From Thuidium tamariscinum (lineage: Eukaryota > Streptophyta > Bryopsida > Hypnales > Thuidiaceae), in assembly GCA_947034885.2 (NCBI GenBank), contig OX344751.2, positions 38,097,082 to 38,161,081 of the forward strand: 64,000 nt of DNA, written 5' to 3'. A program made the position numbers and the translations under genes. How positions within the stretch are numbered: the stretch's first letter is position 1; every line of letters begins with the position of its first letter. Of this stretch, positions 7,520 to 54,893 are shown piece by piece. Below the pieces are notes generated by a model, which ran no database searches, had not been told where the DNA came from, and worked only from the letters and a program-made list of their open reading frames with translations.

Positions 7520-7523
7520 TCAT

Positions 7524-8256
7524 GGGTCATTGCAAGAAACACCTGTACTATTTTGTGTCACACGTTGCATGCTGATCAGTTTTTTGGCCATAACTTTTGT
7601 GTTTTAGCTCCAAATGACTCAAAATTTATAGGGAAGGTACTAATAACTATTATACACCTTCTTTGATTTTTTCATAATTTTCAAAAATATTTTACTATCC
7701 AAAAATAGACCCCGATTGGATGTCACACTTAGCAGTTTAGGGGGTTTTAGTACCTAAGCTATACCTTTTTTTAATGATTTTGAGATGAAATTTAGATGAG
7801 ATGGTCTTCTAGTATATTTCTAGCTCTCCAAGGAAGGATTTTAAAAAAAAGTTAATTTTGTGAGGTGTGGAGGTCTACAAAGTGAGCTCCCTTCTGCTTG
7901 TATTTTGAAACATATAAAATATTATTTTGGTCGGTTTTTTTGTGAATGACCATCTCCATAAAGTTGTTGCAAATTTCACTTTTTATTTTTTGAAAATACT
8001 TATTTTTACTATTTTTCCCTAATTTTTGAATCAAAGTGCCTACTTTCTTGAGATTTGGCACTTTTCAAGTTCTCCTACTTAGAGAATTTTTCTATCAATT
8101 TCCTTAGGTGAAAACCTTCATTTTAGAGGTATATACATTAATCCTATTTTTAAAAAAATTTAAAAATTAGTTTTCTAATTTTATAGTACTCTTGAAAAAT
8201 TCATGAGTACTATTGCAAAACGCAACAAATAGGACAAGTGTTTCTTGCAATGACCC
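7524..8256 (+). mobile_element. TIR element with 4-bp target duplication, copy C1
   Basis: The left end is GGGTCATTGCAAGAAACAC and the right end GTGTTTCTTGCAATGACCC. TCAT flanks both sides (7520-7523 and 8257-8260). The interior matches C3, C4 and C5, including a conserved stretch around TCTCCTACTTAGAGAATTTT. At 733 bp it has no transposase frame. Confidence 0.8.
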
Positions 8257-8584
8257 TCATACCTTATTCATATAGAAAAATGATTGTTAGATTTTTTTTC
8301 ATTTTCATAATTAATGAAATAAGAGCCCTTACACTATTCCTTTTGGATAGACATTCTAAACTATAAGACATTAAAATTGATAGAGAATAGAAAGAAGATA
8401 GACTGTCAAGGTGGTAGCAATTTTGGATGATGAATGGGTTCATTTACATTATTAATTAGAGAATTGAAGCTTTAGAAAGGTGTTTTTTCTATACAATTAT
8501 TTTCAATTAGAATTAGCCTAGTTTAGATGAACATTTAGAAAAAAGATGAATAGTAAAATTAGAGTCGATCTTTCATTCTTCCAA

Positions 8585-8800
8585 GGTACTTCCACATCAT
8601 TATGTTGTTGTCTCTTTTGTTTAGTTCATTGGATCCAAGGTACTTCCACATCATTATGTTGTTGTCTCTTTTGTTTAGTTCATTGGATCCAAGGTACTTC
8701 CACATCATTATGTTGTTGTCTCTTTTGTTTAGTTCATTGGATCCAAGGTACTTCCACATCATTATGTTGTTGTCTCTTTTGTTTAGTTCATTGGATGCAA
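8585..8800. repeat. Tandem array, four 54-bp units
   Basis: Four near-identical copies start at 8585, 8639, 8693 and 8747, each beginning GGTACTTCCACATCATTATG. Since 54 is a multiple of three, frames run through on both strands: on the minus strand an 18-residue repeat containing SNELNKRDNNIMMWKYLG, on the plus strand a Leu/Phe-rich repeat. On the minus strand an in-frame ATG near 8893 would start about 112 residues. No homologous protein is recognised, so coding status is uncertain. Confidence 0.9.
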
Positions 8801-9864
8801 CTTCAAGACTACTAGCAACTTTATTCTTGTAGGCAAACATTTCCTCTACTAAAGAAGTTTGGATTCGCCTCCTAGGCAAGCTCCAAAATGTCTCCATCTT
8901 GTCTACCAAGTTGGCTCTATTGGCTCTATTAGAGGTTTTCTATTAGAAATAGAAAACCCCTCAATTCAACACTTCAATAGACAAAGATGCTATTTCACCC
9001 AATGACTCTTAAAATCATTTTTTCCAAGCACTTGCGTGCACTGAGTCTAAGTTACACTTACAGGCTCTTCCAACCTTCATATTTAAAATTTATAACTAAT
9101 TTATCACGCCACCCGTTTCTTTTGCTTTTCGTAAGCATTTCCCCATGTGCAAAGAATTCTTCATTGTTCTTTCCTCCATACTTGTGAGTGCCACGGAAAC
9201 CATTCCAACCAAGGTTTAGGTCCAATCATGTATGTATGGGAAAATTTGGTGCCTTGTGGGATTCCTTGATGCAGGATCCAAGACATGCACCCAGATCCTG
9301 CATCTTCCACAAGTTATTGATTGGGATTCAGCAAGTGTTCCGAAGATGCACCATGGATAACTACTGAGGGACAGACCCATATGAAGCAGCCGCAATTAGG
9401 CATGATGGAGCAGGCCCCTGAGAATCCGGGGTTCTCATCATTGCATAATTGCAACTAGCAAAGAGTATCGTCGGACCCTACCTTGCCGGCATTCCCCAAC
9501 ATATGGTAGCAGCACCCATAACCATCAAAATAAGCAATTCAGCATGGTTGGAGGCACCGTTTTCTAAAAAATAAATGTTTTTGCACGATTAGCATGAATT
9601 TTAAAAAAAAATTAGAATTTTTGAATAATGTGCTCAAATTTCTATGAATTTTCAAAGTAGAACTCCCTAGGGCACCCTAAATTGCACTCTATTAAAGTTG
9701 CCTAGATTCTCACAACAAAATCTAGGAAAATCAAAGCCCACTAATTTCAATTAAGAATGGGGATGGTTTCAACATACTTTTGGAGACCATTGTTCAACGT
9801 GAAGGTAACTCTAGTGTCAATGAATGGGTACATTAAGTTAATGGTTATAGATGCTTCTACCTTA
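8801..9864. other. Unassigned intergenic sequence
   Basis: About 9200-9560 has clearly higher GC and a short GCAGGATC / GATCCTGC inverted repeat near 9275-9300. I could not assign it to a gene or element. Confidence 0.4.
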
Positions 9865-10220
9865 CATAAGAGGATTTCTGGGCCCCAGAAGACCATTTCA
9901 TGGGTGTTCCCTAAAACTGTTCCCACTGCTGCAGACCACCCCTTTGTTGGGCTGAATTTTTGAATTTTGAAAAAAAAAATTAAAATTTTTTTTCCAAAAA
10001 ACTTTAGAACGTATTAAAAAGGAAAAAAATGATTTAATTTAATTTTTTTTCAAAAGAATATTTTGAAAATATTTAATAATTAATTAAATTTAATAAATAA
10101 TTAGTTTTTTTTGACGTGGTAGTGGCTTGACCACATCAACATTGCGTTCCTAGAGTTCCCAATGCATTCCCAGCATTTGGGAACTCACAGTCTTGTAAAC
10201 CAGCTAGAAATCCTCTTATG
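9865..10220 (+). mobile_element. TIR element, CATNAGAGG family, copy a
   Basis: The left end is CATAAGAGGATTTCTGG and the right end AGAAATCCTCTTATG. The right half holds the family's shared block of a GTGGTAGTGGC-like stretch, then TTCCTAGAGTTCCC and GGGAACTCACAGTCTTGT. Similar blocks occur at about 17050-17250, 34990-35110, 37330-37430 and 55110-55230, and inverted at 46013-46250. Non-coding. Confidence 0.6.
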
Positions 10221-10377
10221 GTTGTTTACTAATTAGGTGCCATACACATAGGTTAGTTTTGGAAATAATAAGAGAAAAGTTGTAGAACTATTATTTAAAA
10301 ATCTGAAGATTTTCATTGCTGCCAATTGTAGATATCCAAAAATTTATTCTTCAAAAAATTTAGAAAAAGGTACTCAT

Positions 10378-11110
10378 GGGTCATTGCAAGAAAGACCGAC
10401 CGATTTATGTAGCGTTTTCCACAGTACTGCTGAAATTTTCGTGAGTACTATATAATTAGAAAAATAATTTTTAAAAAATGTAAAAAATATGTTTTAGGTA
10501 TATACCTCTAAGAAGAAGGTACCCTAGGAAGAAAAAGTGTAGGAAAATTCTCTAAGTAGGAGAACTAGAAAAGTGCAAATTTTCATGAAAATAGCTACTT
10601 TGACATTTTAATTTGTAAAAAATAGGAAAATTTTTTTTAAAAAAAAACTAAAAATTGTAAATTGGGGAGAACTTTATGATGAAGAGATTTCACCAAAAGA
10701 ATGATCTCAAAACCATCTTAAATGTTCAAAAGTATGCGCGCAAGGGAGGCTTGTTCGCGCGTATGTAGAGGAAAGAGAATAACGATTTTTAAGATTTCCT
10801 TTGGTAGAAACATGCCTACCTAGTATGGAAATAGGCCACAGAAATTTCAGCTTTAGATCATTAATTTTGGATGCTCCCCAGTACTAAAAACCCCTAAACC
10901 GCAAAGTGTGACAAATTAGCTTAATTAAAATTTAATTATAAAATGATTTTTGAAAATTTCTGGAAAATAAGTAATTTGATTTTTGTCATGTCAGAAATCT
11001 TTAGTCAAAATTTCAACTTAATATGGTTCATACTTTAAAAGTTATAATCAATAACAACTCCGTCATTCAAAGTGTGACGCAAAATAGTACCGGTCTTTCT
11101 TGCAACTATA
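10378..11110 (-). mobile_element. TIR element with 4-bp target duplication, copy C2
   Basis: The left end is GGGTCATTGCAAGAAAGACC and the right end GGTCTTTCTTGCAACTATA. The interior is in the inverse orientation to C1 (the GTGTGACGCAAAATAG block is at the right). The flanks TCAT and CATG are consistent with a decayed TCAT duplication. Non-coding. Confidence 0.65.
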
Positions 11111-11574
11111 CATGAATACAAAAAATTCATCCAAAATTGAGAGTGTCAAAAAAATACAAAGACTCAAGTGCCAAAATCCGAAGAAAAAAAAGCAAGTTGC
11201 CGAATTGTCTAAATTCTAAAATTGAAATAATTTGGCAACAAGGTACTAAATTTGACCTTAGCATATGACAGCCTCATATCAAGATGTTGAAACTACAACA
11301 CAAAGAAGGTGAAAAATTACTATTACTATCCAAAACATTTGTGGGAATTTTAACAATATAGTAATATAAGAGTTTATAGTAAATTAGGAAGAAGGCTAGA
11401 GTTTCTTCTTTCTTAAATAGGAAAGAAGGCAAAATTGGAGATCAAACTTTTGGAAGGTTCAAAGTGGATTTTTTTAGTTTTGTCCCTAGTTTTGTTTTTA
11501 CCTATGAGAATTCATAAGCATGCAAGTGATTGGGGATTGTAACTCAAGACAAGAACCATGAGTTTAGAACTTAC

Positions 11575-12278
11575 CTTTAAAAGATATTTCATATTTGGCT
11601 TCGTCAAACTTCATTAGATTTCTACATTAAATTTTTTTTTTTAATTTGATATTTTTCACATTTATTAATATATGTATAAAATATACATCATTTGTTCATA
11701 ATCAAAAACATCAAATTGAATGTGATACAATTTTTTTTAATAAATTTCTTTGAAAAAATCATAGTAATTACAAAAGTGATTAAAACAATATGAATTTTTT
11801 AAATGGAAATAATAGTTGCAAACATCATAGAGTGGTTGATGTACTCCTTGAGCTCATTCCAAGAGAAATTCAATACTCCATAGAATTTTTTTTGAAAGTA
11901 GTTATCATAAACTTCATACCTACCCACAAACTAAAATTCCTTGTAACTTTCATGTCATCAATTCAAATGAAATGATTCAAAGCTTCGCATGTGCATATAA
12001 TTCTAAAAAATCAGTTTCAAATTTTCAAATCATAATAAAGTAATATTTCAAGAAGTTTTATCAATTGCCTTGCCTACTCGCCAAATGATGAAAATGATGT
12101 ATCATGCAATAACTTTCTAACTATGTAGTCAAAAGTTATGAAAATTGTTGCAATTTTAAGGTACTCCTTGGGCACATCTTGTGTGAAAATTTCAAGTTAA
12201 GAAAATAAAAACTTCATTCATATTGAGCTGCCCAAAATTGCTATCTTGCCAAAAAAATGGTCTTTGGACCTTTAGGGG
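11575..12278 (+). mobile_element. TTAA-flanked TIR element, copy E2 (left end unclear)
   Basis: The right end GGACCTTTAGGGG is followed by TTAA (12279-12282). The interior aligns with E3 and E4, for example AAATGATTCAAAGCTTCGCA near 11970 and the stretch around ACTATGTAGTCAAAAGTTATG near 12120. The left end is degenerate; the given start is an estimate from a CTTACCTTTAAAAGA motif. Confidence 0.5.
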
Positions 12279-12589
12279 TTAAATGAAGGACATATATTGA
12301 TTAAAGAAAAAAAAGAAAAAAAGAATGGTAATTTTATGATTACAACATCAACAATCAAATTCATACAAATTCCTATTAATTGACAATTTTTCTTATTTTC
12401 AAAACTTTTCTTATAAATGTTGAAAAAGTATTATACCTCCCTACATGTTGAGGAGGCACCTATCACCTAATGCAAGGATAGGGGTTTGAGCCACACAGAC
12501 AATTTTGTTCATTCTAGAATTTCCTTTTGAAGGATGCAAAAGGGATCATTGCCTCATAGGTAAACAATGTCATGTAACCAATCTAACCA

Positions 12590-12870
12590 TCATCCCTTTT
12601 TTATTTAGTTTTTGAAAAAGTGCAAAGATGAAAAATCACTTATACTTTAGTGAAACATTGTATTTCTACATCCATCCATCTTGGAACCAAGGAACACTTT
12701 TCAAATTTCAATCATTGCCTTGCATTTTTTCATCTAAAATTTGACAATTTCATTTATTTTTGGATTTATTTTTTGAATAGAAATGAAAATTTTCTACCAA
12801 TATAAGAATATTTTTATCTAGAAAAAAATAGAAATTTATTTTGTTTTGGAATGGTACAGTCTAGCCAAAG
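12590..12870. repeat. Duplicated segment, copy 1 (without LINE insert)
   Basis: This matches 13685-14060: both have TTTAGTTTTTGAAAAAGTGC, then an A-rich part, a CATCCATCCATCTT motif, TTTTTCATC and TTTGAATAGAAATGAA, and end near TTTATTTT...GGAATGGT. It provides the empty site for the LINE fragment at 13920. Confidence 0.6.
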
Positions 12871-13684: not shown

Positions 13685-14060
13685 GAGCAATCCTTTTTCT
13701 TTAGTTTTTGAAAAAGTGCCAAGATGGTGAACACTTAAAATTTGGTGAAGCATTGTATATCTCCATCCATCCATCTTTTTGACCAAAAAAACACTTTTTA
13801 GTCATATCCATGCACTTTTTCATCCAAATTTGCCGATTTCATCTATATTTTGAATAGAAATGAAGAAATTCTGGCAAAAAAAGATTACTTTTTTACTGGT
13901 AAAAAGTAGACATTTATTTATTTATTTATTTATTTTTGAAACAAATGGAAAATTTCCATTGATAAAGAGGAAACAATACATCGAACCAAGGGAAAACCCC
14001 GACAAAGCATTTTTTTGTTTAAAGTAGACATTTATTTTGGAATGGTGCAATTTGACACCA
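13685..14060. repeat. Duplicated segment, copy 2 (interrupted by LINE tail)
   Basis: Second copy of the segment at 12590-12870, diverged, with about 118 bp extra (LINE fragment plus one target duplication). Confidence 0.6.
13920..14020 (-). mobile_element. 5'-truncated LINE (L1-like) 3' end with 17-bp target duplication
   Basis: AAAGTAGACATTTATTT occurs at 13903-13919 and identically at 14021-14037. Between them, read on the minus strand, is a short sequence with GGGGTTTTCCCTTGGTTC, then TATTGTTTCCTCTTTATCAA, ending in an (AAAT)n tail. The layout of a long duplication, an A-rich simple tail and severe 5' truncation is diagnostic of target-primed reverse transcription. The body resembles 3' ends of plant L1-type LINEs as I recall them. 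No coding sequence survives. Confidence 0.75.
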
Positions 14061-14548: not shown

Positions 14549-14552
14549 TTAA

Positions 14553-16660: not shown

Positions 16661-16664
16661 TTAA

Positions 16665-19906: not shown

Positions 19907-21062
19907 CCCCTAAATGTCCAAGGCTTGTTTTCAGCTTCTTGGAATTTGCTCTAAATTGAACAAAAATCCAATATTTTGATAAGTTGAATCAATTTTTTTG
20001 AATTGTAACCGTACAAATTCAAAATAGACATGTTAGAGATGACATAGGAAAAGAAAACACAACAATATCACTTATGGATTGAAAGATTATTATGTTTGAT
20101 CGTGAGGGTGTAAAAACTATGAAAATCTTTGAGCTCTCTTTTAGCATGTCAAATCTAAAAAGTTAGTCACCAAAAAAATATGAGGTTGAAGGGCCTAATA
20201 AGCATAACCCCAATCAATTTATGGCTTCTCAAAATCTACTCTACAATTTTTTTAAATGAATTTTTAGTGTGATTTTTTTCTCTAAGATCTAGTGTATTTG
20301 AGGCTCATTTCCAAAAGTCCTTAACACTACAGAATGTCAAGATTGCAATGGGTACCCTTGCACTAAATCTTGAATAGAAAAATCATAATCATTCATATTC
20401 AAAATTGGATTATTGATGCTAAAACTAGACTTCAAAAAGAATATTCTAAAAATATAGACTACTAAAAATAGAAATTTGGTAAGGTTTTATTTAACTTCAA
20501 AGTTTCTTTGACACCACTTCCGGGTGCCTTGGGCATGATCCGGGTGGATTGGCCCCCTTGCTCGGCCTTACCATGTTTTACAAGAGGTGCAATTAAAACA
20601 AAAAGCCCCCTAGTTTGGACCATGATCACCCCTACTTCCTTCACGTGCTAGCTAATTTGGGGTCTCTGATCGCAAATATGAATTCAAAATTTGAAAAAAA
20701 AATTGTGTGAAAAAAAAAAATTACAGCATTTTATCCAAGTGGCCAAGTGAGGGGGTCAGTTCTCCCTGCCCCTTGGGCATTTAAGGTGGGTACACCCTAA
20801 AGCGCCCTATTCCTAAAAGCGCCATCTATAGTGCACATACATTTCCGAAATCAGTCATGTTCACAGACTATAGATGGCGCTTTCAGAAACAAACTTTGAC
20901 TGTTAATAACTTTTGCAAATGCTATCCAAATCCTGCGTTCTTTGGTGCGTTGGAACATGCTTTCACTTGCCAGCAAGACTACATAAAAATTTGAACTCAT
21001 TAATAGTAGGAACTAGGCTCAGTATGAATAAGTGGCGCTTTTGGGTGTACCTACCTTAGGGG
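19907..21062 (+). mobile_element. TTAA-flanked TIR element, copy E7 (split by a MITE)
   Basis: The left end is TTAA then CCCCTAAATGTCCAAGGC. The right end is CTTGGGCATTTA, interrupted by the 273-bp MITE, then AGGGG and TTAA (21063-21066). The stretch from 19910 to about 20530 is nearly identical to E8 (22718-23408). About 235 bp (20536-20770) that E8 lacks lies before the right terminus. No transposase frame. Confidence 0.75.
20784..21056 (+). mobile_element. 273-bp MITE, AGGTAGGTACACCC family, copy 2
   Basis: Inverted termini AGGTGGGTACACCC and GGGTGTACCTACCT, flanked by TA (20782-20783 and 21057-21058). It is inserted in the right terminus of E7. E8 shows the uninterrupted site GGGCATTTAGGGGTTAA with a single TA at 23403-23404. 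Internally an AGCGCCATCTATAGT / ACTATAGATGGCGCT inverted pair can form a second hairpin. Confidence 0.92.
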
Positions 21063-22696: not shown

Positions 22697-22804
22697 ATTG
22701 GAGACCTCAAATTGACCCCTAAATATTTGCCCAAGGCCTGTTTTCAGCTCATTGGAGACCTCAAATTGACCCCTAAATATTTGCCCAAGGCCTGTTTTCA
22801 GCTC
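22697..22804. repeat. Two-copy 54-bp tandem duplication at a transposon end
   Basis: Two almost identical 54-bp units (22697-22750 and 22751-22804) each begin ATTGGAGACC and contain the left terminus of element E8 (ACCCCTAAATATTTGCCC). The transposon end has therefore been locally duplicated. Confidence 0.85.
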
Positions 22805-23408
22805 CTTGGAATTTGCTCTAAATTGAACAAGAATCCAACATTTTGATAAGTTGAATCAAATTTTTTTGAATTGTAACCGTACAAATTCAAAGTAGACATG
22901 TTAGAGATGACATAGGAAAAGAAAACACAACAACATCACTTATGGATTGAAAGATTATAATGTTTGATCATGAGGGTGTAAAAACTATGAAAATCTTTGA
23001 ACTCTCTTTTTGCATGTCAAACCTAAAAAGTTGGTCACCAAAAAAATATGAGTTTGAAGGGCCTAACAAGCATAACCCTAATCAATTTGTGGCTTCTCAA
23101 AATCTACTCTACAATTCTTTTAAATTAATTTTTAGTGTGATTTTCTCTCTAAGATCTAGTGTATTTGAGGCTCATTTAAAAGAGTCCTTAACACTATGGA
23201 TTGTCAAGATTGCAATGGGTACCCTTGCACTATCTTGAATAGAAAAATCATAATCATTCATTTTTAGAATCGGATTATTGATGCTAAAACTAGACTTCAA
23301 AAAGAATCTTCCAAAAATATAAACTACTAAAAATAAAAATTTGGTAAGGTTTTATTTAACTTCAAAGTTTCTTCGACACCACTTTTGGGTGCCTTGGGCA
23401 TTTAGGGG
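22718..23408 (+). mobile_element. TTAA-flanked TIR element, copy E8
   Basis: The right end is GCCTTGGGCATTTAGGGG, then TTAA (23409-23412). The left end ACCCCTAAATATTTGCCC is preceded by TTG, a one-base decay of TTAA, and is duplicated in tandem. The interior is highly similar to E7 and, inverted, to E9. It is the uninterrupted reference copy for the insertions in E7 and E9. Confidence 0.75.
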
Positions 23409-23412
23409 TTAA

Positions 23413-24807
23413 AGTTTCAGAGGTGTACAGCATACCCTAATCACGGCACGAAAGAGGTTTTTTTTAAACTTTTACCCCAGACTATCCAAAACTTACTCTG
23501 CATTTTGCAAATGCCAATGGGAACAAAAGTTCGAGGTCCTCATCCGAAATCTCCGCCTCGTGAACATGGGGACGAAATCTACAGACTGGGAAGATGAGGA
23601 GAAACCATGCTGTATTTATGTAGCCTGCGTCTTCCTTTCGCACCACACTCATTCATCCGAGCCTTGCACTTCCAACCTTGCTTCCGTTCAGTTGTCGTTT
23701 GCAAATTTTCCATTCCCATAGCTGCCAGCCTGCTTCTCCTGCTTTCACGGCTGACACATTTCTACTGTAGAGATTGCATGTAAGAGTGCGCTTCCAACAA
23801 GTCAATTCGCGCGTTGATTGGAATCCGGAGCACCGAGGACGGAGTCTCTTCAGTTTCTCTTCAACAAGCTGCTGAATTCGCCGGATTTTCTGTTGACATG
23901 CCCTTGGTAAATGCCTTAACTAATACTATCTATGTGCATTGGTTGTGAGTCGACGGAGCGACCAGGGTCAGGTCGAGTGAGAAGGAAGAGTCTTGAGAGA
24001 GTTTTAGAAGAAATTGATTTACTTATTTCTGTGGGGGAGAATTTGTGAAGATAGAGGAGAGGGAGTGTGGTGCCGGAAGCTTAGGGATTGTATTTCTCCG
24101 GGTTCGCCGCGCGCGCTCCTTGCTTCTAGGTGTTGCGGTAGGGCGATTGGTTGAGGGAAGCTCTACAGTGTAGCGGTTGGAAGAGTCGTCTACACTGCTG
24201 ACGTATGACCGTTTATGTGGAAATTCGGTGTTTGTTCGCTTTTCTGTAGGTCCTACTTAGGCAAGTTGGCTGGTCAGAGAATGCATGTTTTCGTGTCTTG
24301 GTTTTTGGATTTTTTTTTTATTCCTTGTGGTCCCCATATCCCTCAGGTGCCTTCGCACAACACGCCTTGAGAGGAAATGGCCTACCCTTATATGACCTCA
24401 AGGCGTCCATTTGAAGACGCCATTAGTTTCTATTGCCTCTTGCAGCTTTCTTGATTTTCTGTGTGTTTGTGAAAAGCTTCGGATGCATTGTAAGCTTGAG
24501 CTTATGTCTTTACGCGAGATCAGAATGATTTTATGAGCTTTGTGTCTTTGTTCTCCAGTCGAGCACTGTCTTAACTTCTTGAATTCTCTCTTCTGCCTGT
24601 GCTTCAGTCATAGTTTCTGCCAAAAAGGAGTTCCTGCGTGGAGGCTGGGACAACGCCCCTCGACTTTGGACCTGCGGAATTTACCTCTTCCAGGTTGTGA
24701 TGCTTTCTTTTCGACAATAGCATCGGACGAGCAATTTCATACGTTCTTTTAAGCGGATTTTGCACGAAGTAAGGCACTGTGAGATATTTTTACTCTCGAT
24801 CACAACA
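23413..24807 (+). promoter_or_regulatory. Upstream region and long leader of SAUR-A
   Basis: Composition shifts to higher GC from about 23500. A TATTTAT motif at 23613-23619 is followed about 30 bases later by pyrimidine-rich CTTCC...CATTC sequence, a plausible transcription start. A leader intron is possible: GTAAAT donor at 23907 and TGTGCTTCAG acceptor ending at 24607 (an alternative acceptor TTGTTCTCCAG ends at 24558). I saw no perfect TGTCTC auxin-response element. Positions are inferred from sequence only. Confidence 0.35.
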
Positions 24808-25278
24808 ATGGCTGCGTCAAAGAAGCTTACCAAATTCTTGAAGAAGGTGCTCCAAATCTCACCTACGAGCCAGAAGCCATCTTTCTCTCGGCACTCTAGC
24901 GCGACTTCGAACTCGTTTGATTCCTCTTCTCTCGGAATCAACTCAGGGCGCTCATGGGGAAGCATGGCGGATCTCCATAGCTATGACAGCGACACGGACT
25001 CCGCATGTGCTCCCGCTGATGTCCCAAGTGGTTGCCTCGCGGTTTATGTCGGCAAGGAGCAGCAGAGGTTCGTCATCTCGACTTCGTATCTCACGAACAG
25101 AGTCTTTCGAGCGTTGTTAGCGAAGTCCGAAGAAGAGTTTGGTTTCTGCTGTGACGGAGGCCTGCGCATCGCTTGTACTCCGGGTGTTTTCGAGCACCTG
25201 CTGTGGTGGCTGCAAGGTGCTACCTCGGAGTTTGTGGACGACATTGAGATTAGCGGGCATGATGATAGCTCTGATTAG
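24808..25278 (+). CDS. SAUR-like auxin-responsive protein (SAUR-A)
   Basis: A 156-residue intronless protein with the SAUR (auxin_inducible) domain at about residues 70-136. It begins VPSGCLAVYVG, then QQRFVISTSYL, EEEFGF, GGLRIAC and an FEHLLWWL helix, the ordered landmarks of the family. The N-terminus is basic (KKLTKFLKKV), then Ser-rich, with a short acidic SDTDS stretch before the domain. The start is the ATG in AACAATGGC, the plant consensus; the frame is open further upstream without an ATG. SAURs are short-lived auxin-induced proteins; in angiosperms many bind and inhibit PP2C-D phosphatases and so raise plasma-membrane H+-ATPase activity. Whether this holds here is inference. It converges with SAUR-B 5.2 kb downstream. 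Codon GC is well above the surroundings. Confidence 0.93.
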   Translation: MAASKKLTKFLKKVLQISPTSQKPSFSRHSSATSNSFDSSSLGINSGRSWGSMADLHSYDSDTDSACAPADVPSGCLAVYVGKEQQRFVISTSYLTNRVFRALLAKSEEEFGFCCDGGLRIACTPGVFEHLLWWLQGATSEFVDDIEISGHDDSSD

Positions 25279-27035: not shown

Positions 27036-27769
27036 GGGTGATTGCAAGAAACACTTGTCCTATTTGTTGCGTTTTACTATAATACTCGTGACTTTTTTTG
27101 GAGTGCTTTAAAATTAGAAAATTAATTTGAAAAAAATATGAATAATATGAATAATGTATACACTTCTAAGATGAAGGTTTTCATGAAAGGAAATTGATAG
27201 AAAAATTCTCTAAGTAGGAGAACTTAAAAAGCGCCAAACCTCAAGAAAATACATATCTTCATGTTTTAATTCGGGAAAATTAGTAAAAATAGGTAAATAC
27301 AAAAAATAAAGAGTGACCATTTGCAGCAACTCTATGGAGATGGTCATTCATCAAAAAAATCACTACAATAATACTTTATATGTTTAAAAATGCAACCAGA
27401 AGGAAGCTCACTTTGTGGACTTCCACACGACATAAAAATAACTTTTTTCAAAATCCCTCACATGGAAAGTTGTAAGTCTACTAGAAGACCATCTCATCCA
27501 AATTTCATCTCAAAATCATTAAAAAAAAGGTACTCCTTAGTGACTAAAAACCCCTAAACTACCAAGTGTGACATTCAATCACTAGTACTATTTTGAAATC
27601 AAGATACTTTTGAAAATTATGAAAAATTACAGAATGTGTATGGTACCTGTGAGTATCTTCCCTATAAATCTTGAGTCATTTGGAGCCAAAACATAGAAGT
27701 TATGGCCAAAAAACAAATCAGCACACTAGGTGTGACAGAAAATAGGACAAGTTTTTCCTGCAATCGCTC
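27036..27769 (-). mobile_element. TIR element with 4-bp target duplication, copy C3
   Basis: The left end is GGGTGATTGCAAGAAACAC and the right end CCTGCAATCGCTC. Perfect TACT duplications flank it (27032-27035 and 27770-27773). At 734 bp it is almost the same length as C1, in the opposite orientation. It is the intact reference for the CACTA MITE inside C4. Confidence 0.82.
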
Positions 27770-30495: not shown

Positions 30496-30993
30496 CTAGT
30501 AGGCATAGTAGCCTGCGAGTTCATCGATCTCCATGCTGGAGAGTGAAGGATCGTTGGTCTCAATGAGATACAGTAGATGCTCAAAGAAGACCACTTCACA
30601 CGCAATCTCCAACCCTCCCTTGTGCTCGTACCCGTACTCCTCCGCCGACTTGTTCAGCAACGCCTTGAAAACCGGGTAACTCAAGTACTTGGCCTTGATG
30701 ACAAACCGGCACCGCTCCTCCCCCACATACACCACCAGGTACCCCTCAGGAACGTCGTCAGGGGCCGAGTCGTCACTCTCATCATCGGAATCACGAAGAT
30801 CCGCCACTGCCAGACGGCCGGACCTGCTAAAGGCACATCCATTCCTCACGGAGCCGCCATTCCCATGCCTGACCGAGCCTCCAGTTTTAGGGGACTTGGC
30901 ATCGTGGTGGTGCGGCACGCTCTGGTAAGTCAAGCTGGAGCTGGAGAGGCTCTTCTGAATCTTCTGCAGAGCTTTCTGCATTTTGTTCGGCAT
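30496..30993 (-). CDS. SAUR-like auxin-responsive protein (SAUR-B)
   Basis: A 165-residue intronless protein with the SAUR domain at about residues 79-145: DDVPEGYLVVYVG, then CRFVIKAKYLSYPVFKALL, AEEYGYEHKGGLEIAC and FFEHLLYLI. The N-terminus has a basic helix (KMQKALQKIQKSL) followed by Ser, His and Gly-rich linker sequence and an acidic run (DSDDESDDSAPDD) just before the domain. The start ATG lies in GCCACCATGCC, a strong context; a second in-frame ATG follows at codon 5. The C-terminus ends in GYYAY. The role is as for the family: fast auxin-responsive growth regulator. It differs from SAUR-A across the linker, so the two are not a recent duplicate. A leader intron is likely upstream. 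Confidence 0.95.
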   Translation of the reverse strand: MPNKMQKALQKIQKSLSSSSLTYQSVPHHHDAKSPKTGGSVRHGNGGSVRNGCAFSRSGRLAVADLRDSDDESDDSAPDDVPEGYLVVYVGEERCRFVIKAKYLSYPVFKALLNKSAEEYGYEHKGGLEIACEVVFFEHLLYLIETNDPSLSSMEIDELAGYYAY

Positions 30994-31262
30994 GGTGGCG
31001 AGTGAGCTTGAAAAAAAACAATCTCAGAACACACGCCTCAGTCAAGTGAGGAACACTACAGAATGCTGTGATGAGGAGCACGTCCGTACGAGTGAGGGGA
31101 GGGAATTGCAGAGGCTATTGAGAGCATAGCTCCTCCGGAAGCCAACGTTCGTGAAATCCAACGTTGCGGATGAAGATGTGCTGTTGGTGCTGGGCCTTCA
31201 TGGAGGAATACAGTGCAGCTGGACTTGTAATAATGTGTCTGGTTATGTCACCATCAAGGGGT

Positions 31263-37436: not shown

Positions 37437-39291
37437 ATGAATGGACTCTTTACATTTCTTAGTCCCATAATGGCCATTCCAAAAATAGATTGATTTGTTT
37501 TGGGTTGCTCAAAAATTTAAAAGTTACGAGGTTGGAAATGTAGAGTGATCATCCTTATTATATCTCTCTTGTCCTCCTAGCCACTAACTCTTTTTTGGAC
37601 ACCTTAATTTGAAAATGCCCCAAATTGTCCTTATAGCCACTTGATGTACTTTAGACTTCTACTAAATGCATCCTTACATTTCCATTAAAGTATCCTTTAA
37701 CTAGAAACTTCATCAAACCATCTCGTTTCTTAACCCACAAGTGCCCTAACGCCCCAAATTTGGCCTCTTAAAATTTAAAGATTGCCCTATTTCACTATTC
37801 AAACCTTTTCAATGGTACAATCAAAATCATTAATTTGTCGTTTCACTTGATTGTATGGTTCCAACTATGTCTCTACTACCAATCTCAAATTTTGTGGATC
37901 TTGTTTTTGGTGATAATTTGATTGAAATGAGTTTGAAAGGGTCTAGATTTTAGTAAACATGCTCTTGGTGCCTAGTGCTTAATTACCATTAGCTCATTGT
38001 TGGTTATGTCAATTTTGGTTTTAGGTCCATCTACATGATAGATTCAATGGGCTAGTGAGTTTTTACATTGAAAATTGATAGGAAATATATGCCATATCTA
38101 AAAAATATATATACATATATCTTTTATATTCAAGATTTTCTATTGCTAATATTGTATGATATTTTCTACAAAAGTTGCCTCCAACTTTGGTAGACTAGTC
38201 CATTTCTACCAATTGTCTATTTTTGCCATTCTATTTTTGGCCCCATCTCCACAAATAAGCTCATCCAAATCCGTATACTTTTTTGACAAATTCACTACAT
38301 TAATTCCAACTTGGGTAACATGTCAATCCTTGATTGGTGTATACTCAAGTGCTAACATGTGCATGGAATGGCGGTTGTAGGTTGTTTTGGGGACATTTAT
38401 GCCCCCCTTCATACAAGTAGTTTTGTAATTATGGTCAAACCACTTCAAAAATTCATAGAAGTTTCAATTTGAATCAAAAAAATTTAATTCCACTTGGGTG
38501 TGATTCACAAAACATGTGCACACCTCTGGAAAATATGTGCCCTTCTTGAAGTGGACCCCAAGATATTCAATTTGCAAATCAGGGTGGTAATAGGCTTGTC
38601 TACCTTATGCTGAATTGCTTACATTGACGGTTTTGGGTTGTTTCTCCCGGAAGTTATTTGCACCCCTGATCATTCCGGCAATCAAAACAAAGCCAGAGTC
38701 CCACCTGAGCAATGAGTGAGACCTTGAGTGCCCGGACAACATCCAAAAGGACAAAAGGTTCCATGTACTCACTGCTCCTATTTCAACGCAAATCATCCAT
38801 TTGTTTCAAGAAGAAGAAAAAAAGAAAGAAAGAAAAAAGGGCAAAAGGAGAATTAAAAGGAGTCACACAAATCCCCATCTCTCAGATGTGGCCAAGCTTC
38901 AGTTCAGCCAAAATATCATCAGGTAAATAACTGAAAGGCTCCCTCCCTACTCTAAGACTTTGGAACTTAGGCAGTAAAGAGAGACGCCACCAATGGAAAC
39001 TCTCACTATTCAGTGTTCAGGTTGAGGCCACCAATAACCAGCCACGCCCAATACTCAACCTGTAAGCTTAACAGGGATGCAGTATTTCCAATGGAGGCCA
39101 ATCAAGGCCAGAAGAGATTTCCAACTAGAGCTTGAATCATGGTTTTTGGGTCTTTTTTGAGGTTGAGACCAGGAAGGTTTATGACACATATCCCAAATTA
39201 GTGAGCATAGGAAGCAGGAAGTAAGATATATTAGTAGGCAGGAAAGTCACTCTTGAATGATGGGAAGCGGAAGACTCTAGACATTGGCTAC
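37437..39291. other. Intergenic sequence, no gene seen
   Basis: AT-rich to about 38500, then moderate GC to 39290. A purine-only tract of A and G lies at about 38808-38850. Short frames only. Confidence 0.45.
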
Positions 39292-39293
39292 TA

Positions 39294-39566
39294 AGGTAGG
39301 TACACCCAAAAGCGCCACTTATTCATACTGAGCCTAGTTCCTTCTATTAATTAGTTCAAATTTTTATGTAGTCTTGTTGGCAAGTGAAAGCATGTTCCAA
39401 TGCACCAAAGAACGCAGGATTTGGATACCGTATGCAAAAGTTATTAACAATCAAAGTTTGTTTCTGAAAGCGCCATCTACAACCTGTGAACATGACTGAT
39501 TTCAGAAATGTATGTGCATTGTAGATGGCACTTTTAGGAACATGGCGCTTTTGGGTGTACCTACCT
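39294..39566 (-). mobile_element. 273-bp MITE, AGGTAGGTACACCC family, copy 3
   Basis: Perfect inverted termini AGGTAGGTACACCC / GGGTGTACCTACCT with TA on both sides (39292-39293 and 39567-39568). Inverted in orientation relative to copies 1 and 2 and of identical length. Confidence 0.9.
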
Positions 39567-39568
39567 TA

Positions 39569-40074: not shown

Positions 40075-40334
40075 TGAGTTATTTGTAAAGTCCCCCCACT
40101 GTGGGCATGACTTTTTTTGAAGTTGAGAAGGCAACTATAGTTGAAGCGTCAAACTTTTTTGCAAGATACTTATGTCACACGACTTCAAAAGTGGGGACCA
40201 AAATTTTTTAGGCACCATTTTGATGGAAAAATAAGTTTCATACCCACTTTCATTTCAACTTTTTTAACTCAACTGATTTTTTCACAAAACTCATGGGTTT
40301 AAACCCCAGTTTAGGATACTTTAAGAATAACTCA
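40075..40334 (-). mobile_element. 260-bp TIR element, TGAGTTATT family, copy b
   Basis: Termini TGAGTTATTTGTAAAG and AAGAATAACTCA. The full interior is the reverse complement of the copy at 2113-2373, including GGCAACTATAGTTGAAGCGT. Non-coding. Confidence 0.7.
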
Positions 40335-40874
40335 AATATGGTAGAATTTTCTTACAATGAAATATGATTTCTTTTTTAAAAAGCAAACTTAGAGGTCAGC
40401 GCATCAGTGCATGTAAAAGGGTATATATATCTTATCCACGTTCGATCAGAAGTTTGTTTGTTTGTTTTTGTTTTTTCTGAAATGGGTCCATGTTTGGGTG
40501 AGCATTTACAGCCAGCAACTGCTTCTCATGTAATGGGGTAACCAACCCATTTCCAATCAACCCCCATTTCTAGAGTCTATGCTGTCTAATTTCCAAGTAT
40601 AGGAGATGGGAGTTATCAGTCTCAAAGCTTGCAACCCATTTTTTATCACTTGAGAAATTTAGCATAATTCCCAATTGAATTTGGTGGGGGGATAATTTTT
40701 TCTTCTATGGAAAAATAGGTTTAAGATGGATTTGGAATTTTTCCATATTTTTCCACCCAAGAACAAAATTAGTGTGAATTTTTTTTGTGAAGATCTTTTG
40801 AAACCTATTCTTGACATATACGTATGTCTAGTTCCAATCATAGGTTGGTCAAGAAATGCAGAGGAAATCAACAA
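40335..40874. other. Intergenic sequence, no gene seen
   Basis: Contains ACCCATTTCCAATCAACCCC near 40545, which reappears inverted near 42140, suggesting an old repeat pair. Confidence 0.4.
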
Positions 40875-47273: not shown

Positions 47274-48129
47274 GGGTGAATGCACAAAAGACTTGTACTA
47301 TTTGTTGCATTTTGGAACAATATTCATGAATTTTTCCAAAATATTTTAATATTAGAAAACTAATTTAAAAATAAATGAAAATATGTGCATTGTAAACTTC
47401 TTTGAGGTAAAGGCAACCATGAAAGGAAATTCATTAAAAAATTTCTCTAAGTAGGAATTAGGAAAATTTGAAAAGTTCCAAAATCAAGAAATAAATAAAT
47501 ACTTCAATGTTTTAATTAATAAAAAATAGTTAAAAAAATTAATTTAAAAATAAAACTTGTCCATTTATAGAAACTTTATGGAGATGAACTTTCACCAAAT
47601 TGAGAGTCACCAAAATAAATTTTTACATGTTTTGAAATGCAAACAAGAAAGACGTTCACTTTGTTGACTTCACTACAAAAAAATGAGTGTTCACAATGAC
47701 TACAAGATGATTGTAAAATGACTACTATAGTCATTTTGCAGTCATCTTGTAGTCATTGTGGACACTCATTTTTTTTGTAATGCTTCTACACCATTTAAAA
47801 TTAACTATTTCTAAAAATCCTTTGTAGGGTACTCACAAATCTACTAGAAGACCATCTCCTCTAACTTCCAAATTTAAATTCATTTATTTGGATACTCAAT
47901 AATACTAAAAGAACCCTAAATTGGCAAGTGTGACATAAATTTGGGTCATTTTTATATAGTAAAATATTTTTTTAAATTTCAAAAAATTATATAAGTTGTA
48001 TAATAGTTATAAGTACGATTTATATAAATTTCAAGCCATTTGGAACCAAAACGTAGAAGATATGGCAAAAGAACAAATTATGCAAGGTGTTTACATACAA
48101 AATAGAACAAGTGTTTCTTACAATCACCC
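47274..48129 (-). mobile_element. TIR element with 4-bp target duplication, copy C4 (carries a MITE)
   Basis: The left end is GGGTGAATGCACAAAAGAC and the right end GTGTTTCTTACAATCACCC. The flanks are TTTT and TTCT, a decayed 4-bp duplication. After removing the CACTA MITE and its duplication it is about 743 bp, matching its relatives. Orientation as C3. Confidence 0.72.
47673..47782. mobile_element. 110-bp CACTA-type MITE
   Basis: Termini CACTACAAAAAAATGAGTG and CACTCATTTTTTTTGTAATG, almost a full palindrome, flanked by CTT (47670-47672 and 47783-47785). C3 shows the empty site at about 27419, GTGGACTTCCACAC, with a single CTT. Confidence 0.9.
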
Positions 48130-48133
48130 TTCT

Positions 48134-50371: not shown

Positions 50372-50523
50372 TTGCAGTACTGTTTCATTGTTTACGCAGT
50401 AAGCAATTGAAAGTATACTTTGGCAATACAAAAGCAGTACTGCAACAATTCTGAGGCAAAGAAATATTGTGTTTGCGTTGAAACAATACTTTTGCAGTAC
50501 TGCGTAAACAGTGAAGCAGTAAA
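50372..50523. mobile_element. Foldback element 1 of a three-element cluster
   Basis: Arms share CACTGTTTACGCAGTA-like sequence with TGCAGTACTG motifs in inverted orientation around an AT-rich centre. Its motifs (GCAGTACTGCAAC, TTGAAACAATAC) recur in the next two elements. Confidence 0.55.
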
Positions 50524-50604
50524 TATTCCAATATGGGACAATTGAAACTGAACTGAACTCACTCACTCACTACTCACCCGTGAGGAAAGTAACCCCCATT
50601 GCAT

Positions 50605-50793
50605 CAATACTGTTTCAATGGATTCACAGGAGAGGTTTGAAAGCATAGTGTTGCAGTACAAAAGTTATATTGGAACATTATAGTTTCAATGAAAGGCATT
50701 TTTTGCATTGAAACTATATCGTTGCGATATAAGTTTTGAACTGCAATAGTATTTTTTCAATGCTCTTTTGTGAACCCTTTGAAACATTACTAC
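50605..50793. mobile_element. Foldback element 2 of a three-element cluster
   Basis: The left arm CAATACTGTTTCAATGG, then ATTCACAG, is matched by the inverted right arm with TGTGAACCCTTTGAAAC. The segment preceding it, GAGGAAAGTAACC, recurs before element 3, so element plus flank is tandemly repeated. Confidence 0.6.
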
Positions 50794-50872
50794 AATATTA
50801 CTGAGGCAGTGGGAGGCTTTTTCCTGAGTGAAACTGATGGAACTGACCGTAAGGAAAGTAACCGTCCATTGA

Positions 50873-51069
50873 AACAATATTGTTTCAATCAATTCACAGT
50901 CCAACCCTGAAGTTATACTGTTGCAATACAGAGGCAGTACTGCACTGTGTTGTTTTAACAAAAGCACTGTGTTCTCATTGGAGCATATATGTTGCAATAC
51001 TGCTTTTGTTTTACAACATTATAATTTCAGGTTGGACTGTGAACCCATTGAAACAATACTGCAACAGTA
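50873..51069. mobile_element. Foldback element 3 of a three-element cluster
   Basis: Arms of about 70 bp: left CAATATTGTTTCAATC, then TTCACAGTCCAACC; right GGTTGGACTGTGAACCC, then ATTGAAACAATACTGC. The best preserved of the three. Confidence 0.7.
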
Positions 51070-52646
51070 CTAAGGGAGCGGGGGGTTGTTCCCCGATCTC
51101 CCGTGGCAGTGCCCAACCTCCACCCACGCTTCATCCATCGACTTCATCCATGATGGGGGGGCGGGGGGCTGGGGGGGGCCGGTTCACCCTGCCTCCAACC
51201 GAGTGGGATGACGATATTGCATGCTAGCCAGCTACAGCGGCTGCGTCAGGAATCTCCGCCTCCGAGGTCGAGTGGCTTCTGCTGACTTTCTCGCGCGGTC
51301 TGCGCCATTGAAACGCTCAGGTTTTGCGCCTGCATACCCGCTCGCCGTGGTAGCGCGCGCGGTGAAATAGTTGGTTGGTCACCCAAGGAGGCACCCATTT
51401 GTCAACCCTGCCCTTCAGTGCCCTGCCACCCTGCAGGGAGGTCGGAGTGAACTGGAACCCTCGCTCGTCCCCCCGCCCCCCCTCCCCGCCTCCCCACAGC
51501 CACTCCTGGGGGGCATGTATAAAAGAAAAACCTACTTTGTGCCGCATTAAGCGGTTACGTTCTAGTCTTCTAGATCGCACGAGCTCTCTGATTTCAACTG
51601 TGAATTCCGTATTTGCAAATTTTACCATGTGTGGAAAATTAAAAAATTCAGCGTTTTCCCTCGGGGACGGGGTGAGGGGGTCCGTCAGCTCACCCCGGCT
51701 CAGAGATGGCTCAGTTGACAGTTGATGGTCCACCAGCTTCGGTGAATTGGTGACTCATCACGCAACTGCCCCACTGACAGGAATTGAATCCAGGGTCAAT
51801 TCCCTGTTGCGCAAGCGATTTGCAAGTTGCAACCAGCATCCGACGGAAGTTGGTGAAGATCAGACATGACTGCCGCGATTACAGTGGACGCGCCTGCACA
51901 TGGAGCTCCCACATTCGCACCAGGGCCGGGGAGGCCACCATTCTAAGATTGGCAATGGGGATCTTTGCGTGTTGCGGTTGCAAACTTGTGATTGCTAGCC
52001 TTCGATTTCATGAATCCTCCCACCCACTGACCCACCCCATCACCCATTTCCCCCCTTCAGAGCTGTATGGAATGGACGATACTGTGGATTGGGATGTGCA
52101 GTAGACCGACCAGGGAAGGCCGGACCAGTACATCAGGAGGTCTACTGCAGGTCGGGTCCATCGGCCAAGAAAGACCTGGCTGATGGATGAGGACGAGAGA
52201 TCTGGTGGTATTTAGGCGAAGTGGTAAATGAACTTGGATTCAAACTTACAAGCAGATGCGCTTGGAATTACATTAGTTGAGGCCTGAGGGGTCGCATTTC
52301 TGTACTGTCGTACTTTAAACAGGCATTACGGTATACTCTATTTTCAGTAGATACCTAGATCAGAATCTGGATCTCCATTCTGGCTCGGAGGTGAATAATT
52401 TAAATTTAAACTTGTCACTGGAATATAGTCCAATCCCTGGCTGAAGTTAACTAGAGAACTTGCCTAACAACTGCATCAATCCAACTCTCTCCTAGATTAC
52501 TCTCACTAAATTATCATATTATCTTTTGCTTTGTGTAAAAGTAGGATTGCTATCATTGGAAGTGCATAAAGAATCTCATTATTTAATCACAATAAAATTT
52601 GGATTTGGAAAGTGGATAAAGGATTGTTTGCAAGAAACACCTATCC
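51070..52646. other. GC-rich then AT-rich region, no gene supported
   Basis: Between about 51080 and 52140 GC is high, with C-runs and G-runs (near 51150-51180 and 51470-51500). Overlapping frames on both strands have no recognisable domain. The last 25 bases (GTTTGCAAGAAACACCT near 52627) resemble the terminus of the C-family, suggesting that E9 landed in a C-family end. Confidence 0.4.
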
Positions 52647-52650
52647 TTAA

Positions 52651-53469
52651 CCCTTAAATGCATGAGGTCCCAAATTTTGATGTCAACAAGATTTTGAAGT
52701 TAAATAAAACCTAACGAAGTTACTATTTTTATTGATTTTGATTTATGAAAAATCTTTTTTAAACTCTAAATTTAGCTTCAAAAATACAATTTTGAAAATG
52801 AATGATAATGATTTTTCTATTCAAGATTTTGTGCAAGGGTGTCCATTACAAATCTTGATTTTCTAGTGTTGAGCGGTGCTCTTGGAAATGAGTCCCCAAT
52901 ATACTAGATCTTGGAGAAAAAATCACATTAGAAACTCATCTCAAAAAAAGTGTAGAGTAGATTTTGAAAAGGCAAAAATTGATAGGGGTTAAATGTAAGT
53001 TGTGCCCTTTAATCTCATATTTTTCTAGTGACATGCTTTTTAAATTTGACATGTAAAAAGGAAATTGAAAGTCTTCAAATTACTTTCACAATTTTAACAC
53101 CCTCAAGACCAAACATTATAATCTTTCAATCCATCAATCATATTTTTGTGTTTTTTTTTCTAGGCCATCTTTGTCATGTCTAGTTTCACTAGAAGAAAAT
53201 TGTGTTTGCTTCAACAAAGTCTACTTGATGTGTTTGTTGAGGCAAACGCAAAAATTGCGTTGAAGAATGCAAAAAAACGCAGATTTTGCGTTTGCCTCAA
53301 TAAACACATCAAGTGGATTTTGTTGAAGCAAACGCAAATTTCTTCTAATGTTTGAATGTGTTTAGTTACACTTCTAAAAAATTGATACAATTTATCAAAA
53401 TGTTTTTCTTTTGTTCCATTTTTTCAGCAAACTCCAAGAAGCTCAAAAAAAACCTTGGACATTTAGGGA
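52651..53469 (-). mobile_element. TTAA-flanked TIR element, copy E9 (carries a CACTA MITE)
   Basis: The left end is TTAA (52647-52650) then CCCTTAAATGCATGAGG. The right end is CCTTGGACATTTAGGGA then TTAA (53470-53473). Inverted, it aligns with E7 and E8 (for example GATTGAAAGATTATAATGTT in reverse complement near 53120). Non-coding. Confidence 0.72.
53187..53350. mobile_element. 164-bp CACTA-type MITE
   Basis: Termini CACTAGAAGAAAATTG and AAATTTCTTCTAATG, with nearly palindromic arms around GTTTGCTTCAACAAA and CACATCAAG, flanked by TTT (53184-53186 and 53351-53353). E8 has the uninterrupted site (AAATTCAAAGTAGACATG at about 22885-22902). It shares the CACTAGAAGAAAA start with the 1.13-kb element at 15312. 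Confidence 0.88.
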
Positions 53470-53613
53470 TTAAATATATCACATGTAATGTATATCATGT
53501 CTTCTACCATATTTTTTCAAAATACTACAATTTTCTAATAATTTGGTTAGTATGTATGTAATTAAAAAGATGCCCAATTTTTGGAAAGTTATTGACCTAG
53601 TTTACCCATATAC

Positions 53614-53843
53614 CACTACAAAAAAATGATGTTTTAAATATAGTCCAAGAGATAAGATTTTAAGTAATGACCTTTTTAGGAGATTTTTATTAAGAATTTA
53701 CTAAAAATACGTGTCTTTCCTGTAAAATTTTACTAGAAAGACATGTATTTCTAGTAAATTCTTACTAAAAATCTCCTAAAAAGGTCATTAATTAAAATCT
53801 TATCTCTAGGACTATACTTAAAACATCCATTTCCCTTGTAATG
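53614..53843. mobile_element. 230-bp CACTA-type MITE
   Basis: Termini CACTACAAAAAAATGATG and CATTTCCCTTGTAATG, with long inverted arms that include GATAAGATTTTAAGTAATGA and CTAAAAAGGTCATTAATT. The flanks TAC and TAT are consistent with a one-base-decayed 3-bp duplication. Confidence 0.8.
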
Positions 53844-53844
53844 T

Positions 53845-53900
53845 ATACTTATATACATATACATACATACATACATGAATATATATACTTACTTACTTAC

Positions 53901-53954
<54 letters not shown>

Positions 53955-53978
53955 TTACATACATACAAATACATTCAT
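53845..53978. repeat. (ATAC)n / (TTAC)n / (TA)n microsatellite
   Basis: A long compound simple repeat with an uninterrupted TA stretch of about 40 bases near 53910-53952. Confidence 0.92.
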
Positions 53979-54015
53979 TTATTCATGAAGAGTTTTCTAA
54001 TTCATAGGAATTCAA

Positions 54016-54734
54016 GGGTCATTGCAAGAAACATCCATCCTATTTTCCGTCACAATGTGGATCACTTTTTTGTTATCTACTATAACTTTTGGAGCAAAAG
54101 TCCAATGAACATGAATTTTTTATTGAAAATGCCTACCTTTATGGTAATTATATTCCTTTTTTTAAAATAAAAAATCATTTCATATTCAAAAATCATTTTT
54201 GTTGAGCTATCACAAGGTATAATTTATGAGTTTCTCTGTGTTATGAGTGCCTAAATTTAATGATTTGTAGACAAAAATTTCATGGTCTATTTGAATAGGT
54301 ATAAAACATATATCTTCCAAATACAATCTAAAAATATGTTGTTTTATGACCTCCACATGAGTACAAATACAACTCCTGTTGCATACAATTTTTGAATATT
54401 TAGGATGGTTCTAAGATCATTCTTCTCGTGAAATATCATCAATATCAATTCTTTCCAAATAAATTTTTTTTAGTTTGAAACAAGATAATTGTTTTCCTAT
54501 TTTTTATAGATTAAATTGTAAAAGTACTCATTTTCATGAGATTTTGCACTTTTCTCTCCTACTTAGAGATGTTTTCTATGCTTTTCCTTTTTAGGGTACC
54601 TTCTTCTTAAAGGTATAAAACATTTTTTTCACTCTCTTTAAAAATTGTTTTTCTAATTTTAAAGTACTCCAAAAGAAATAAAAGATAATTGTGAAAACCC
54701 TTCAAAAAACACGTGGTGTTTTTTGCAATAACCG
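54016..54734 (+). mobile_element. TIR element with 4-bp target duplication, copy C5
   Basis: The left end is GGGTCATTGCAAGAAACATC and the right end GTGTTTTTTGCAATAACCG, with perfect TCAA duplications (54012-54015 and 54735-54738). The interior matches C1 in the same orientation. Non-coding, 719 bp. Confidence 0.8.
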
Positions 54735-54893
54735 TCAATTTGCATATTTGTAATCTAACTTGTGTTCTTAAGTTGGTACAAGTATTAAATTTAGTAATTA
54801 TATTTGGGCAACTCAAATAATATTGACAAATACTAGTAAAAAAAAGTATTGCTTCTCAAAAATAACACAAGGTAAAGAGTCTAGAATTTGGAG

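What the first reader, a model, noticed from the sequence alone, without database searches (positions are those of the whole stretch)
7520..54738. A ~735-bp TIR family with 4-bp target duplications
Five copies (7524, 10378, 27036, 47274, 54016) share ends GGGTCATTGCAAGAAACAC. Three have perfect 4-bp direct flanks (TCAT, TACT, TCAA) and two have near-matches. Four-base duplications do not fit the main plant superfamilies (TA, 3, 8, or 9-11 bp). Among described groups Sola2 and Ginger make such short duplications, so this may be a rarely recognised or undescribed plant lineage.
Basis: partly seen in the sequence, partly recalled or inferred. Interest (0 to 1): 0.72.

Follow-up and report, generated by a model that had tools for sequence, protein, structure and literature searches.

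The report
Plant jumping-DNA family, 4-base duplications
The window holds five copies of a short jumping-DNA family that carries no gene of its own; the family has over a thousand copies in this plant genome, its insertions duplicate four bases of the target, and the enzyme that moves it has not been found.

Summary
The window has five copies of a non-coding terminal-inverted-repeat (TIR) element of about 734 bp, in a 363-Mb land-plant assembly with 2141 exact copies of the 19-base end. Of 78 genome copies with both ends found, 60 have identical 4-base flanks, 12 more differ by one base, and none match over 5-9 bases; shuffled flanks give mean 1.5, maximum 6. Empty-site alignments also single out 4 bases, and one copy nested in another copy's end gives a clean example. 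So this is a real DNA transposon family with a 4-bp target duplication and no evident target motif. No copy checked carries a gene. Ginger fails on ends and target sites; Mutator, hAT, Harbinger, Tc1/mariner and CACTA do not fit. Sola fits on duplication length and is recorded in a moss and in Azolla, but no long copy with a transposase was found, so membership is not shown. The genome is rich in long open DUF7869 genes. I suspected these as helpers, but the two lineages examined end differently, apart from one ambiguous copy. Verdict: real, old, many subfamilies, most likely Sola-like; helper unknown.

The parts
7524..8256 (+). Copy 1, 733 bp, TIRs GGGTCATTGCAAGAAACAC (the two ends 93% alike over 30 bp), duplication TCAT at 7520-7523 and 8257-8260; youngest subfamily seen (cl0)
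   Evidence: 39 other genome copies listed at 94-96% identity over almost the full length (40 of 6331 candidates scored)
10378..11111 (-). Copy 2, 734 bp, another subfamily (cl2), right end mutated (GCAACTATAC), flanks TCAT / ATGA do not match
27036..27769 (-). Copy 3, 734 bp, duplication TACT on both sides, 81% identical to copy 1
47274..48129 (-). Copy 4, 856 bp including a palindromic insertion of about 115 bp; flanks TTTT / TTCT (one mismatch)
54016..54734 (+). Copy 5, 719 bp, duplication TCAA on both sides, 55-67% identical to the other four

Best explanation
A non-autonomous cut-and-paste DNA transposon family (large-MITE type): about 734 bp, non-coding, ends GGGTCATTGCAAGAAACAC in inverted orientation. 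Shown: the family, its ends, its copy number, the 4-bp target duplication without an evident motif, nested insertions, and diverged subfamilies of nearly constant length. Inferred: a DDE transposase encoded elsewhere binds the inverted ends, cuts the element out and joins it across a 4-base staggered cut; gap repair makes the 4-bp duplication. The helper is most likely a Sola-superfamily transposase, because that superfamily makes 4-bp duplications and is recorded in a moss and in Azolla.
For: 60 of 78 copies with exact 4-bp flanks, 0 with a match of 5-9 bp. Ungapped empty-site alignments for 18 of 80 elements when 4 bases are removed, against 0-4 for any other number from 0 to 10 (the 80 counted). 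A copy nested at TGTA inside another copy's end: removing it with one TGTA restores GGGTGATTGTAAGAAACAC. No open stretch above 103 codons in 26 copies, and at most 66 in the consensus of 36 young copies. Duplications are diverse (48 different in 60), 28% GC, no target position above 0.1 bit. 1064 forward and 1077 reverse exact ends, 0 and 0 for the reversed control. Sola: 4-bp duplications, TIR 11-1124 bp, found in moss (PMC10741241, passages).
Against: No copy with a transposase was found, so the superfamily rests on duplication length alone. The two DUF7869 lineages tested as possible helpers have other ends. Published Sola2 duplications in slime moulds are AT-rich, such as AWWT (PMC3627910, passages); here only 12 of 60 are A/T only. 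18 of 78 copies lack an exact duplication (12 by one base); 5 of the 18 empty-site junctions are weak, 15-17 identical of 24.
Confidence: 0.6

Rival explanations
1. The family belongs to an undescribed superfamily of plant DNA transposons with 4-bp duplications and GGG ends, with a helper unlike Sola.
For: Ends match no superfamily end that I tested or recall; no helper found; the end sequence is in no transposon paper of the library (4 papers hold an 11- or 13-base piece of it, none on transposons by title and start of abstract).
Against: Absence of a helper reflects limited sampling: 78 pairs and 25 single ends were read out of thousands of ends, and 40 of 44 genome searches did not complete.
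Confidence: 0.15
2. The helper is a DUF7869 transposase-like protein. These genes are numerous here, and one group-A copy (C10) has a GGGTCATTGCAGGAAACAC end right at its 3' boundary.
For: 150 scored of 854 candidates in the genome, the listed rows all above the Pfam cut-off, many with open frames of 950-1076 codons. D, DN and GHTHEDID motifs shared by two lineages 27% identical, though the C9 copy reads ANN and the C6 copy GHMHED. GGGTC end at L079:1053 abutting the group-A boundary; score 34 against the family end, reached by 0.0004 of random window pieces.
Against: The 10 other group-A copies whose 3' boundary was read have no recognisable GGGTC end after it (similarity reached by 8-95% of random pieces). 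Group B ends in ...GAATAAGGCCTT, and 7 of 8 further B copies end at the same place. C10 may be group A inserted into a 734-type copy, but the other half of that copy was not found within 10.4 kb upstream of the frame, so that reading is not proven either.
Confidence: 0.12
3. Ginger-type (integrase-like) elements mobilise it.
For: Ginger makes 4-6 bp duplications and occurs in plants (PMC10741241, passages).
Against: Ginger ends TGTNR, targets CCGG/CCGT or RTATAY (PMC2836005, passages); here ends GGGTC, 0 of 60 CCGG/CCGT/ACGG sites, no position above 0.1 bit.
Confidence: 0.03
4. A Mutator-like family with an atypical short duplication.
For: G-rich TIR start is common in MULEs (recalled).
Against: MULE duplications are 7-12 bp (PMC10741241, passages); 0 of 78 flanks match over 7, 8 or 9 bp, 0 of 46 over 10-12, and empty sites support 4.
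Confidence: 0.06

Closest known systems
Sola superfamily (Sola1/Sola2)
   Same: 4-bp duplications; TIRs of variable sequence and length; recorded in Physcomitrella, Azolla and Capsicum
   Different: No transposase seen for this family; the duplication is less AT-rich than the slime-mould Sola2 AWWT; the original Sola paper was not held
Ginger1/Ginger2 and plant Ginger
   Same: 4-bp (4-6 bp) duplications, TIRs
   Different: Ends TGTNR and CCGG/CCGT or RTATAY targets; here GGGTC ends and no target motif
Tourist/Stowaway/hAT/Mutator MITEs of plants
   Same: Short non-coding TIR elements in high copy number
   Different: Duplications of 2, 3, 8 (partly recalled) or 7-12 bp instead of 4
Pfam DUF7869 (PF25273) genes of this genome
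   Same: Same genome, abundant, long open frames, repeated D/DN/GHTHEDID motifs
   Different: Element ends AACACCCAATTAG (group A, 3' end) and AAGGCCTTATTCG (group B, right end), not GGGTCATTGC; one group-A copy ambiguous

Membership tests
Non-autonomous TIR (class II) DNA transposon / large MITE | Terminal inverted repeats | tested here: met
   Ends agree in 78% or more of copies at each of the first 19 positions in 78 copies above 600 bp, less so to about 30, then not
Non-autonomous TIR (class II) DNA transposon / large MITE | Target duplication of fixed length | tested here: met
   60 of 78 exact at 4 bp, none at 5-9; empty sites 18 of 80 against 0-4
Non-autonomous TIR (class II) DNA transposon / large MITE | No coding capacity, high copy number | tested here: met
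   Longest open stretch 103 codons in 26 copies; 2141 exact ends
Sola | 4-bp target duplication | tested here: met
   definition from PMC10741241, passages
Sola | DDD transposase of the Sola type | not testable with these tools
   No transposase-bearing copy found; no Sola reference sequence in the libraries used
Sola2 | AT-rich duplication (AWWT in slime-mould elements) | tested here: inconclusive
   12 of 60 duplications are A/T only; GC 28%; that preference was read for one host group only
Sola3 | TTAA duplication (recalled) | tested here: not met
   0 of 60
Ginger1 | TGTNR ends and CCGG/CCGT duplication | tested here: not met
   Ends GGGTC; 0 of 60 CCGG/CCGT/ACGG; definition from PMC2836005, passages
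Ginger2 | TGTNR ends, RTATAY target | tested here: not met
   Ends GGGTC; no position of the 24-bp target profile exceeds 0.1 bit
Mutator (MULE) | 7-12 bp duplication | tested here: not met
   0 of 78 flanks match over 7, 8 or 9 bp; 0 of 46 over 10-12
hAT, PIF/Harbinger, Tc1/mariner | 8-, 3- or TA duplication (hAT and Harbinger lengths recalled; TA) | tested here: not met
   0 of 78 at 8, 1 of 78 at 3; the 60 exact duplications are 4 bp and diverse
CACTA / Chapaev | CAC... ends (recalled) | tested here: not met
   Ends GGGTC or close variants in the paired copies
DUF7869-encoding elements of this genome as helper | Shared terminal sequence | tested here: inconclusive
   Group A: 10 of 11 read boundaries have no recognisable GGGTC end, 1 (C10) has it abutting; group B right end AAGGCC; left ends of both unknown; other lineages among the 854 candidates not examined

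The most novel reading that the evidence does not exclude
A superfamily of plant DNA transposons not yet described, defined by GGGTCATTGC ends and a strict 4-bp duplication without target motif. It would have been active in this lineage long enough to leave about 734-bp groups that now share only 49-80% identity (11 groups in the sample, seven of them single copies), with a helper that is neither Sola nor any named transposase.
Probability: 0.13. Interest if true: 0.7.

Novelty: new member of a known kind. Interest (0 to 1): 0.38.

Why it matters
Plant transposon annotation commonly relies on 2-, 3-, 8- and 9-bp duplications (my general knowledge), so a family with thousands of ends and a 4-bp duplication can go unnamed or be misfiled. 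Its near-constant length over a wide range of divergence also raises a concrete question: which transposase has kept a gene-less 734-bp element moving, and which internal blocks are needed.

Tried and rejected
Longer duplications (5-9 bp) and shifted element edges: rejected. Coding remnants in the elements: none of note. Long GGGTC-ended copies: 25 unpaired ends were examined. Four of them had no long match to the known subfamilies (L036, L044, L056, L079); L036 and L044 were extended (L108, L109). L108 proved an 813-bp copy without a long frame inside; at L109/L044 no partner end or transposase turned up, and other long frames there look like a peroxidase gene (by eye). L056 lies at a locus edge; L079 is the C10 case. 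DUF7869 (PF25273, an accession I picked from memory as a possible Sola-like domain): strong hits, but groups A and B have other ends; their left ends were not recognised, as a copy of the right end, within 10-11 kb upstream of the frames, so their own duplication length is unknown. I checked whether the other group-A boundaries hide a decayed GGGTC end: only C10 stands out. The structure model of the group-A core had mean pLDDT 38 and was not used. PDB by sequence: no match at E up to 1. Rfam on the window at gathering scores: none. The Bao 2009 Sola paper is not held. DUF7869 is in no held paper.

The 1.08-kb form (L005, L011, L012) is a foldback of about 520-bp arms of the same family, not a long autonomous copy; L029 (1082 bp) looks alike. 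L013 is a 734-type copy with a foreign insertion (by eye).
Full report
Observation. The 19-base end GGGTCATTGCAAGAAACAC has seven matches with up to three mismatches in the window against 0.01 expected. Five full copies align from end to end, with pairwise identity 55-81%. Their edges and flanks are 7524-8256 TCAT/TCAT; 10378-11111 TCAT/ATGA (right end mutated); 27036-27769 TACT/TACT; 47274-48129 TTTT/TTCT, with a palindromic insertion of about 115 bp; 54016-54734 TCAA/TCAA.

Genome. The window is part of a 363.2-Mb assembly in 19 contigs. The 11 contigs whose lengths were printed add up to 362.9 Mb, so it looks like 11 chromosomes. Two auxin-responsive SAUR genes in the window (PF02519) mark a land plant. 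The exact end occurs 1064 times forward and 1077 times reverse, the reversed control 0 and 0. A search with copy 1 scored 40 of 6331 first-look candidates.

Duplication. I fetched stretches around listed ends near the start of contig C1, took the loci of the 30 best matches of copy 1, and paired forward and reverse ends (up to 5 mismatches of 19, 250-3000 bp apart). Of 78 pairs, 60 have identical 4-bp flanks, 12 differ by one base, 0 match at any length from 5 to 9 and 1 matches at 3; 2000 shuffles gave mean 1.54, maximum 6. Among pairs with at most one mismatch in both ends together, 47 of 58 are exact. With later loci, 60 of 81 are exact and 13 differ by one. The duplications are diverse (48 different in 60), 28% GC, with no target position above 0.1 bit, 0 TTAA and 0 CCGG/CCGT/ACGG.

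Empty sites. When the flanks were joined with k bases removed and aligned to other fetched sequence, an ungapped junction appeared for 18 of 80 elements at k=4 and for 0-4 at the other k from 0 to 10 (the 80 counted). Five of the 18 junctions are weak (15-17 identical of 24), and three lie in the element's own locus (L009, L014, L070). One 733-bp copy in L018 sits inside another copy's end, and taking it out with one TGTA gives GGGTGATTGTAAGAAACAC. Other copies are nested in family members (L009, L010, L038), and L057 is inserted in sequence 87% identical to the group-B DUF7869 gene.

Anatomy. The inverted ends agree strongly over 19 bases and weakly to about 30. The consensus of 36 young copies is 734 bp with mean divergence 3.2% and maximum 9.3%. 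Of 68 copies of 680-760 bp, an 80% threshold gives 11 groups (37, 18, 4, 2 and seven single copies), with first members sharing 49-80%; the size of the first group is inflated because 30 loci were fetched with copy 1. Other forms: foldbacks of 1.08 kb with two inverted arms of about 520 bp, 804 bp, 389 bp, 813 bp. No open stretch exceeds 103 codons in the 26 copies checked. So the copies seen are gene-less and must be moved in trans.

Helper search. I guessed from memory that Pfam PF25273 (DUF7869) might be a Sola-like catalytic domain. It has 150 scored of 854 candidates here, many with open frames of 950-1076 codons, some with stops, and 0 of 14 control genomes. Two lineages share D, DN and GHTHEDID motifs, with changes in two of the three group-A copies aligned. 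Group A: in 11 copies whose 3' boundary was read, the shared sequence stops at ...AATTGGGTGTT or a close variant. In one (C10) a GGGTC end follows directly; the 30 bases after the boundary of the other ten resemble the family end no more than random pieces do (P 0.08-0.95; C10 0.0004). Group B: 11 copies are 97-100% identical to the query over its first about 4072 bases, with the end ...GAATAAGGCCTT; 7 of 8 more divergent copies stop at the same place. So neither group is shown to be the helper; C10 leaves a small opening for group A. Their left ends were not found, and other lineages were not examined. Twenty small group-A windows held two GGGTC ends, both of ordinary gene-less type.

Comparison. 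Plant superfamilies with other duplication lengths do not fit. Ginger fails on ends and targets (passages). Sola fits by its 4-bp duplication and variable TIRs (PMC10741241, passages), and is listed for Physcomitrella and Capsicum (PMC9033089, passages) and for Azolla (PMC6786969, one passage). Giant elements of three superfamilies including Sola-1 in a brown alga generally exceed 10 kb (PMC12477816, passages), which may explain why long copies are easy to miss. Without a transposase, membership stays open. The end sequence was looked for in the paper library: four papers hold an 11- or 13-base piece, none about transposons by the listing.

Verdict. A real and old family, most likely a non-autonomous Sola-like family.

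Noticed in passing
L079, L080, L082, L083 and places: The genome holds hundreds of DUF7869 candidates, many with long open frames; group B has 11 copies 97-100% identical to the query copy, 7 of them on the small contig C11, so it looks recently active. Its full element and duplication were not resolved.
   Followed up: partly
L079:1040-1080 (G000:C10): A group-A DUF7869 element ends where a 22-23 bp GGGTCATTGC end begins; either it inserted into a 734-type copy or this copy carries that end itself.
   Followed up: partly
window 47274-48129, inside copy 4: An inserted palindrome of about 115 bp (ACAAAAAAAATGAGTGTC...GAACACTCATTTTTTTGT), apparently another tiny foldback element.
   Followed up: no
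L013:153-1157: A 734-type copy with a foreign insertion near one end, flanked by inverted CATTAGATG / CATCTAATG sequence, apparently a different foldback element.
   Followed up: no
window 8580-8800, 22697-22810 and 63688-63905: Three separate tandem arrays all have a 54-bp period (18 codons); the first lies in an open frame and the last mostly in one.
   Followed up: no
window 20782-21059 / 39291-39568, 5732-5918, and 2110-2355 / 40092-40337: Other dispersed repeats, with pairs up to 93% alike in inverted orientation; one matches other genome loci.
   Followed up: no
window 24721-25275 (+) and 30499-31023 (-): Two diverged SAUR (auxin-responsive, PF02519) genes.
   Followed up: no
L080:4059-5393 (-): A CACTA-type transposase fragment (Transposase_21, PF02992) adjoining the right end of the group-B element.
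   Followed up: no
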